A DNA stretch of 64,000 nt. It comes from Clostridiales bacterium Firm_16 (GTDB lineage Bacteria; Bacillota; Clostridia; Saccharofermentanales; Saccharofermentanaceae). Location: positions 62,001 through 126,000 of the forward strand of contig LVAV01000028.1 in assembly GCA_001604185.1 (NCBI GenBank). The letters are read 5' to 3'. Shown here piece by piece: positions 20,721-63,422 of the stretch (the stretch's first letter is position 1; each line of letters starts with the position of its first letter). The position numbers and the translations under genes are program-made. The notes beneath the pieces are model-generated. The model saw only the letters and a program-made list of their open reading frames with translations, did no database searches and had not been told where the DNA came from.

Positions 20721-20734
20721 GGAACGAATGTTCG
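20721..20734. promoter_or_regulatory. LexA/DinR-type SOS box upstream of recA
   Basis: GGAACGAATGTTCG contains GAAC-N4-GTTC (Bacillus-type LexA operator core), just downstream of the -10. Confidence 0.85.
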
Positions 20735-61954: not shown

Positions 61955-61982
61955 AATCCGACCACGATCATGTAGTCGGATT
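61955..61982 (-). terminator. Possible hairpin terminator overlapping stop codon of 61968-62501 gene
   Basis: AATCCGAC/GTCGGATT 8-bp stem; stop codon lies in the loop; only modest T-tract. Confidence 0.4.
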
Positions 61983-62501
61983 CGTTGTAGGTATTGTTGT
62001 ATTGGATGGTATTGGTGTCACCGCTTCAGATTCAAGACCGATTCCGGCTTTTGTTGTTTCGGTGGCAAACGGATCACTCTGTGTGAGATCCTGAATGTCA
62101 CTGATACCGATCATCTGTTTATACTCGTCGGTATCGATCTGCGGTGCGACCCATCGGTAGATCATGATCAGGATGAGTGCGATGATACATACGACCAGAA
62201 TTCTGCGGATGATGAGCAGCCAGCGCTGTTTCCGAAACTTTCGGTCAACATATTCCTTAGTGGTGTAGCCCACAAGAACATAGACCTTATGAATGGATTT
62301 GCGCTTAGGCATCCTCTTTTTCTCAGCAATTTTTTCTTTGATTTTCTGGGAGATCTTCCCCGGAAGGTTCTTAAAGAAATTCCACGTCGTTCGTCCTATG
62401 AATGCAAAAAAATGGAGTACTGCAAACAACGCTCTTTCCCACCATGGGTCGCGGTTTCCTTCCTCATTGGGCGTATTGGAATTGAGTAATTCTTCGTCCA
62501 T
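61968..62501 (-). CDS. Uncharacterised single-TM membrane protein (177 aa)
   Basis: RBS AAAGGAAGAAGAAG upstream; basic region then TM WLLIIRRILVVCIIALILIMIYRWV. Confidence 0.75.
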   Translation of the reverse strand: MDEELLNSNTPNEEGNRDPWWERALFAVLHFFAFIGRTTWNFFKNLPGKISQKIKEKIAEKKRMPKRKSIHKVYVLVGYTTKEYVDRKFRKQRWLLIIRRILVVCIIALILIMIYRWVAPQIDTDEYKQMIGISDIQDLTQSDPFATETTKAGIGLESEAVTPIPSNTTIPTTNPTT

Positions 62502-62557
62502 CTCTTCTTCTTCCTTTTAAGATATGAAGATTATAGCACAATGAGAAATGATGTGCA

Positions 62558-62683
62558 TTACAACTTACTTATAGACGGGTTGATAATCATCATATAGGAA
62601 AGAATTCCCAAAGCCAGGAGCAATAACGTACAGATTGAAATGATTACGAAAGCTGTATGATCGAAGTCTTTCTTTCTTCTCAT
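62558..62683 (-). CDS. Putative 41-aa single-TM microprotein: MRRKKDFDHTAFVIISICTLLLLALGILSYMMIINPSISKL
   Basis: ATG at 62683 (reverse), RBS GAAAGGAACACC upstream, TAA at 62558-62560; hydrophobic helix with basic N-terminus; not in supplied ORF track. Confidence 0.6.
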   Translation of the reverse strand: MRRKKDFDHTAFVIISICTLLLLALGILSYMMIINPSISKL

Positions 62684-62713
62684 AGGTGTTCCTTTCTTTG
62701 TTTTGTTTAGATA

Positions 62714-62727
62714 CGAACAATCGTTTG
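62714..62727. promoter_or_regulatory. LexA/DinR-like SOS box between lexA and the divergent genes
   Basis: CGAACAATCGTTTG (GAAC-N4-GTTT), overlaps lexA -35. Confidence 0.75.
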
Positions 62728-62753
62728 ACAACCGATAGAAGGAATGATAATAT
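62725..62753 (+). promoter_or_regulatory. Promoter of lexA
   Basis: TTGACA (62725-62730), 17-bp spacer, TAATAT (62748-62753). Confidence 0.8.
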
Positions 62754-62780: not shown

Positions 62781-63422
62781 ATGGGCGTCTACAGGTTTAC
62801 CAGAAGCAATCTGAATGAAACATTAGAAATCATATATTCTTTTATCGTGTCCTATGTTAGGAAAGAAGGTTATCCGCCTTCTGTTCGCGAGATCTGTCAG
62901 GGTGTCGGTATTAAGTCTACCTCTACTGTTCATGCACACCTGCACCGACTTCAGGAAGCCGGTAAGATCGAGTATACTCCAGGTAAGAGACGCGCGATCC
63001 TTATTAAGGAAAGCAAGAAGAAATCTAATGCGTCTTCTATGACGAAGATTCCTCTTGTTGGTACGGTTACAGCGGGCGTGCCGATCTTAGCGGAGGAGAA
63101 CGTCGAATCATATATGCCCTTCCCTTCCGAGTATTTCAATTCTGCTGAATACTTCATGCTGAAGGTCCGTGGTGACAGCATGATCAATGCACATATCATG
63201 GATGGAGATTATGTCATTGTACGCCGTGACAATATGGCGAATATGAATCAGATCGTTGTTGCTTTGATCGGCAACGAGGCTACCGTGAAGAGATTGTCTT
63301 ATCGTGGCGGCCATGCCCTGCTGCTTCCTGAGAATCCGGCTTATTCACCGATTCCCTTCGAAGATGACGATTGTCGTATTCTAGGTGTGGTATCCGGAAT
63401 CTTCCGATCGAAAGTCAATTGA
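62781..63422 (+). CDS. lexA: SOS repressor LexA
   Basis: GYPPSVREICQGVGIKSTSTVHAHL wHTH; VTAGVP cleavage site; RGDSM and EATVKRL catalytic Ser/Lys. Confidence 0.96.
   Translation: MGVYRFTRSNLNETLEIIYSFIVSYVRKEGYPPSVREICQGVGIKSTSTVHAHLHRLQEAGKIEYTPGKRRAILIKESKKKSNASSMTKIPLVGTVTAGVPILAEENVESYMPFPSEYFNSAEYFMLKVRGDSMINAHIMDGDYVIVRRDNMANMNQIVVALIGNEATVKRLSYRGGHALLLPENPAYSPIPFEDDDCRILGVVSGIFRSKVN

What the first reader, a model, noticed from the sequence alone, without database searches (positions are those of the whole stretch)
61968..62727. Possible non-canonical SOS membrane module divergent from lexA
Seen: two minus-strand genes (41-aa TM ORF 62558-62683, then 177-aa TM protein 61968-62501, 56 bp apart) diverge from lexA across a LexA-like box (62714-62727). 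Known: in Bacillus subtilis lexA is divergent from the SOS division inhibitor operon yneA-yneB-ynzC, where YneA carries a TM and a LysM domain; Caulobacter SidA is a ~29-aa SOS-induced TM division inhibitor. Neither protein here has a LysM-like region that I can see. Inference: this pair could be a functional analogue, a SidA-like SOS microprotein plus membrane partner.
Basis: partly seen in the sequence, partly recalled or inferred. Interest (0 to 1): 0.72.

Follow-up and report, generated by a model that had tools for sequence, protein, structure and literature searches.

The report
SOS-linked membrane microprotein beside lexA
In a genus of rumen bacteria a tiny gene sits right behind the DNA-damage switch site shared with lexA and encodes a conserved one-helix membrane protein, probably a brake on cell division after DNA damage, while the larger membrane gene next to it is an unrelated always-on neighbour.

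Summary
The interpretation splits in two. (1) The 41-aa ORF is a real gene. It occurs in 18 of 23 genomes of its genus (rumen Saccharofermentanales) in the same place, with dN/dS 0.10-0.52, one gain and one loss. Its ATG lies 20-30 nt behind the box in 14 of 18 genomes, as for recA, uvrB and dinB in this host. Constraint is concentrated in the transmembrane helix, along one helical face, while the outer tail varies. The genome encodes no detectable LysM domain, so a YneA-type inhibitor is unlikely. A SidA/SosA-like, transmembrane-acting SOS division inhibitor is the best reading, inferred rather than shown; no canonical promoter for it was found. (2) The 177-aa protein is not its partner. It belongs to an unnamed order-wide family (96/98 genomes) with its own conserved promoter (TGCTATAAT), and occurs without the microprotein and in genomes that lack lexA. 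The LexA box itself is explained by lexA autoregulation, since it is also invariant in the 5 genus members without the microprotein. In a sister genus the same slot holds a sigma-region-4-like (DUF1492) gene.

The parts
62558..62683 (-). 41-aa single-TM microprotein gene; proposed SOS-induced division inhibitor
   Evidence: ORF, SD AAAGGAA at 62689-62695; orthologous frame in 18/23 genus genomes, dN/dS 0.10-0.52 in pairs of relatives; conserved helix face
62714..62727 (.). LexA box CGAACAATCGTTTG, shared by lexA and the microprotein
   Evidence: 0 mismatches; 0-mismatch match in 23/23 genus genomes
62725..62753 (+). lexA promoter TTGACA-17-TAATAT; its -35 overlaps the LexA box (autoregulation)
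62781..63422 (+). lexA
   Evidence: Pfam LexA_DNA_bind 1e-17 and Peptidase_S24 4e-34
62530..62538 (-). extended -10 (TGCTATAAT) of the 177-aa gene's own promoter, inside the 56-bp gap
   Evidence: present in 23/23 genus genomes (one reads TGTTATAAT) and many others of the order
61968..62501 (-). 177-aa single-TM protein of an order-wide family without a name; neighbour, not judged part of the SOS module
   Evidence: homologues in 96/98 genomes, no Pfam/NCBIfam/PHROG/PDB relative
61955..61982 (-). terminator-like hairpin at the end of the 177-aa gene
   Evidence: no such site between the two genes
20721..20734 (.). recA LexA box (reference for box-to-ATG spacing)
   Evidence: CGAACATTCGTTCC, 18 nt before recA ATG

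Best explanation
The 41-aa ORF is a genuine LexA-controlled gene. When DNA damage removes LexA from the shared box, lexA and the microprotein are transcribed in opposite directions. The product inserts as one helix (basic N-terminus inside, short C-terminus outside) and uses one face of that helix to bind a membrane partner, most likely the septal synthase FtsW or its complex, delaying division until repair is done. The 177-aa protein is a separate, constitutively expressed membrane protein that happens to be the next gene; read-through may raise it somewhat during SOS. Shown here: coding status, conservation, position at the box, TM constraint, independence of the 177-aa gene. Inferred: LexA control (about 0.75), division inhibition (about 0.5), FtsW as target (about 0.35).
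For: Coding and old: same start, RBS and frame in 18/23 genus genomes; dN/dS 0.10-0.52; third-position excess p=3e-12 over 6 pairs; one gain, one loss on the LexA tree. SOS slot: ATG 20-30 nt behind the box in 14 of 18 (57-59 nt in four); recA, uvrB and dinB have 18-23 nt. TM is the working part: N-terminus plus TM dN 0.17/dS 1.28, tail 0.27/0.55; conserved columns 15, 18, 22, 25, 29 form one face, periodicity peak at 100 degrees, p=0.02. No LysM domain found in the genome, while two FtsW/RodA-type proteins are present. Precedents: lexA-linked one-TM inhibitors SosA, DivS, YneA (PMC6851548); SidA, 29 aa, on FtsW (PMC4211646); the YneA TM binds FtsW TM7 (PMC13396833). 177-aa gene independent: own promoter, kept in lexA-less genomes.
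Against: No canonical promoter for the microprotein: best matches are no better than shuffles, whereas recA, uvrB and dinB carry a -10 just ahead of the box. The box is equally invariant in the 5 genus members without the ORF, so its conservation is explained by lexA autoregulation. The window protein's tail is very short; for YneA the TM alone localises but does not inhibit, and SosA needs its outer part. Orthologues diverge strongly (7-32% identity to the window protein), and dS is near saturation in several pairs. A clade of five species does without it. No expression data.
Confidence: 0.5

Rival explanations
1. One reading: the 41-aa and 177-aa proteins are one SOS operon and act together as microprotein and membrane partner.
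For: Same strand, 56 bp apart, no terminator-like site between them, one after the 177-aa gene; both single-TM.
Against: The 177-aa gene has its own conserved extended -10, lies in 5/23 genus genomes and across the order without the microprotein, and persists in genomes without lexA. No LexA box lies at its own promoter in the window genome (nearest 212 nt before the ATG).
Confidence: 0.12
2. The microprotein is an SOS-induced membrane-damaging peptide of the TisB/DinQ kind that lowers membrane potential instead of blocking division.
For: Small, single-span, at a LexA box; DinQ is an SOS-regulated single-TM peptide (PMC3567139, listed).
Against: The helix is fully hydrophobic with one conserved interaction-like face and has no amphipathic charges; long tails in many orthologues; no antisense RNA partner was looked for.
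Confidence: 0.13
3. The microprotein is translated but not LexA-controlled; it merely lies behind lexA's autoregulatory box and has another membrane role.
For: No promoter recognised between box and ORF; the box is invariant where the ORF is missing.
Against: Box-to-ATG spacing matches recA, uvrB and dinB; a second, unrelated gene occupies the same slot in a sister genus with similar spacing.
Confidence: 0.2

Closest known systems
SosA (Staphylococcus aureus)
   Same: small, one N-terminal TM, divergent from lexA, LexA-controlled position, no LysM domain
   Different: 77 aa with a conserved, essential outer C-terminal part; here the outer part is about 8-13 residues in the window protein and unconserved among orthologues; function untested
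SidA (Caulobacter crescentus)
   Same: very short (29 aa), single TM, SOS gene, little beyond the helix
   Different: not adjacent to lexA as far as I recall; alphaproteobacterial; no sequence relationship tested; FtsW binding shown there, only inferred here
YneA (Bacillus subtilis)
   Same: divergent from lexA, single TM
   Different: LysM domain needed for inhibition; none here and none found anywhere in this genome
DivS (Corynebacterium glutamicum)
   Same: lexA-linked, single TM, no LysM (PMC6851548)
   Different: sequence not compared here; actinobacterial

Membership tests
YneA | gene divergent from lexA across a LexA box | tested here: met
YneA | single N-terminal TM | tested here: met
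   hydropathy, residues 10-28
YneA | outer LysM domain | tested here: not met
   no Pfam hit; no LysM match in the genome
SosA | lexA-divergent small TM protein without LysM | tested here: met
   definition from PMC6851548
SosA | conserved outer segment just after the TM | tested here: not met
   tail unconserved and less constrained than the TM
SosA | sequence homology to staphylococcal SosA | not tested
   no SosA sequence was compared
SidA | very short single-TM SOS protein acting through its helix | tested here: inconclusive
   size, box and TM constraint fit; SOS induction not measured
SidA | binds FtsW and blocks septation | not testable with these tools
   no complex prediction or assay; FtsW/RodA family present
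LexA regulon of this host | ATG close behind a LexA box | tested here: met
   20-30 nt in 14/18 genomes; recA 18, uvrB 23, dinB 22
LexA regulon of this host | -10 element just ahead of the box | tested here: not met
   seen for recA, uvrB and dinB, not for the microprotein

The most novel reading that the evidence does not exclude
A genus-specific microprotein family stops septation in a LysM-free Gram-positive-type lineage through one face of a single helix alone, and the lexA-divergent SOS slot is an exchangeable site: microprotein in one genus, a sigma-region-4-like (DUF1492) regulator in its sister genus, nothing in others.
Probability: 0.35. Interest if true: 0.6.

Novelty: new variant of a known kind. 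Interest (0 to 1): 0.45.

Why it matters
If right, it adds a Clostridia-side case of an SOS division checkpoint made of little more than one transmembrane helix, in a genome with no detectable LysM domain. Natural variants from 35 to 75 residues would separate what the helix does from what the outer part does, an open point for YneA, SosA and SidA. It also shows that the divergent lexA slot is refilled with unrelated genes between sister genera.

Tried and rejected
Box string alone as evidence: rejected, counts equal control. 177-aa protein as SOS partner: rejected on promoter, distribution and lexA-less genomes. LysM/YneA relationship: rejected. Microprotein promoter scan: nothing above shuffles; a weak reverse-strand -10 (TATTAT, 62747-62752) inside lexA's own -10 might give bidirectional initiation, not shown. 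AlphaFold2 of the 177-aa protein: two helices (20-63 and TM 82-121), pLDDT 73, pTM 0.43; no fold search was run because single helices give empty matches. A first 16-row alignment was too diverse for the genome-contig scan; a narrower one worked. Class-wide search for the 177-aa family: no convincing member outside the order, the other hits (E near 1e-4 to 1e-3) being weak. No paper found on SOS genes of this group.

Full report
Observation. The two minus-strand ORFs, lexA and the box are present at the stated coordinates. The 41-aa frame starts at ATG 62683 behind AAAGGAA and has one hydrophobic span with a basic N-terminus; the 177-aa frame has one span at 96-114. The box is the only perfect match in the window, but the same pattern occurs genome-wide no more often than its reversed control, so the string alone proves little.

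Host. The window lies in a 3.7-Mb assembly whose nearest named matches are gut and rumen MAGs labelled Clostridiales, Ruminococcaceae, Saccharofermentans or Mageeibacillus. I call the order Saccharofermentanales; that name is my inference from these titles.

The box belongs to lexA first. In all 23 genomes of the genus the element CAAACGATTGTTCG is kept (one genome varies in the centre), including five genomes in which nothing but the 177-aa gene follows. Its far end overlaps the TTGACA -35 of lexA. Conservation of the box is therefore no evidence for control of the other side.

The microprotein. In 18 of 23 genomes a short frame with one TM starts behind the box. Lengths are 35-75 aa. Pairwise dN/dS is 0.10-0.52 wherever it can be computed, and substitutions concentrate at third positions (90/57/147, p=3e-12 over six pairs). 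The window ORF itself has no close relative; its comparisons with four relatives show only a mild third-position excess, so its coding status rests mainly on shared start, position and frame. On a LexA tree the presence pattern needs one gain and one loss. The box-to-ATG distance is 20-30 nt in 14 genomes and 57-59 in four, against 18, 23 and 22 for recA, uvrB and dinB. N-terminus and TM are much more constrained (dN 0.17, dS 1.28) than the tail (0.27, 0.55), and the conserved columns 15, 18, 22, 25, 29 form one helix face with the periodicity of an alpha helix (p=0.02). This is what a TM-TM contact would look like. No LysM domain was found in the genome, and two SEDS proteins (FtsW/RodA family) were.

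What argues against. The three reference SOS genes carry a -10 just ahead of the box; the microprotein does not, and no promoter beats shuffled sequence. In YneA the TM targets FtsW but the LysM domain inhibits (PMC13396833); SosA needs its outer part (PMC6851548). A nearly tail-less protein would have to act like SidA, which is 29 aa and binds FtsW (PMC4211646).

The 177-aa protein. It is found in 90 of 98 genomes by single sequence and in six more by profile, with no Pfam, NCBIfam, PHROG or PDB relative. The core is a basic stretch with VYxLxGYTT, then a TM, then a short outer tail. 78 of 89 fetched loci have lexA divergent within 2.2 kb. But a TGCTATAAT-type promoter stands directly before it in the whole genus and in many other genera; genomes without a LexA_DNA_bind match (G058, G060, G072, G084) keep it, beside miaA and hfq; in four genomes of another family it follows an M18-type aminopeptidase with overlapping or nearly touching ends while lexA is elsewhere (the aminopeptidase name is my reading of the sequence, not a tool result). 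It is a housekeeping neighbour. My guess for its work, a membrane-anchored basic protein of constitutive function, is weak.

The slot. In the sister genus, 25 of 25 genomes with linked lexA and 177-aa homologue carry a 160-220-aa DUF1492/sigma-region-4-like gene between them, as a rule 14-40 nt behind a LexA-like box. Two unrelated genes in one slot speak for the slot being used for SOS output.

Verdict. Real, conserved and lineage-specific; a SidA/SosA-like function is likely but unproven; the two-gene module is not supported.

Noticed in passing
L025 (950 onward), L027, L028, L031, L033, L037-L050, L052-L057: In the sister genus a 160-220-aa DUF1492/sigma-70-region-4-like gene lies between lexA's LexA-like box and the 177-aa homologue in 25 of 25 linked genomes; a candidate SOS-controlled regulator.
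   Followed up: partly
L016, L017, L019, L023, upstream of the 177-aa homologue: TATAAT ends 7 nt before the ATG, which would give a leaderless mRNA for this gene in these species.
   Followed up: no
L066, L105, L243, L241: Order members without a detectable lexA keep the 177-aa homologue, in some cut down to about 75-125 aa, beside miaA and hfq.
   Followed up: partly
L070, L075, L079, L081: Here the 177-aa homologue follows an M18-type aminopeptidase with ends that overlap by 4 nt or nearly touch, suggesting an operon.
   Followed up: partly
whole genome G000: No LysM domain at the search threshold in a 97.6% complete genome.
   Followed up: no
L229:2563-2576: One-mismatch LexA-like box (CGAGCGTTTGTTCG) about 160 nt before a MraZ-like gene, near an FtsW/RodA gene; may be chance.
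   Followed up: no
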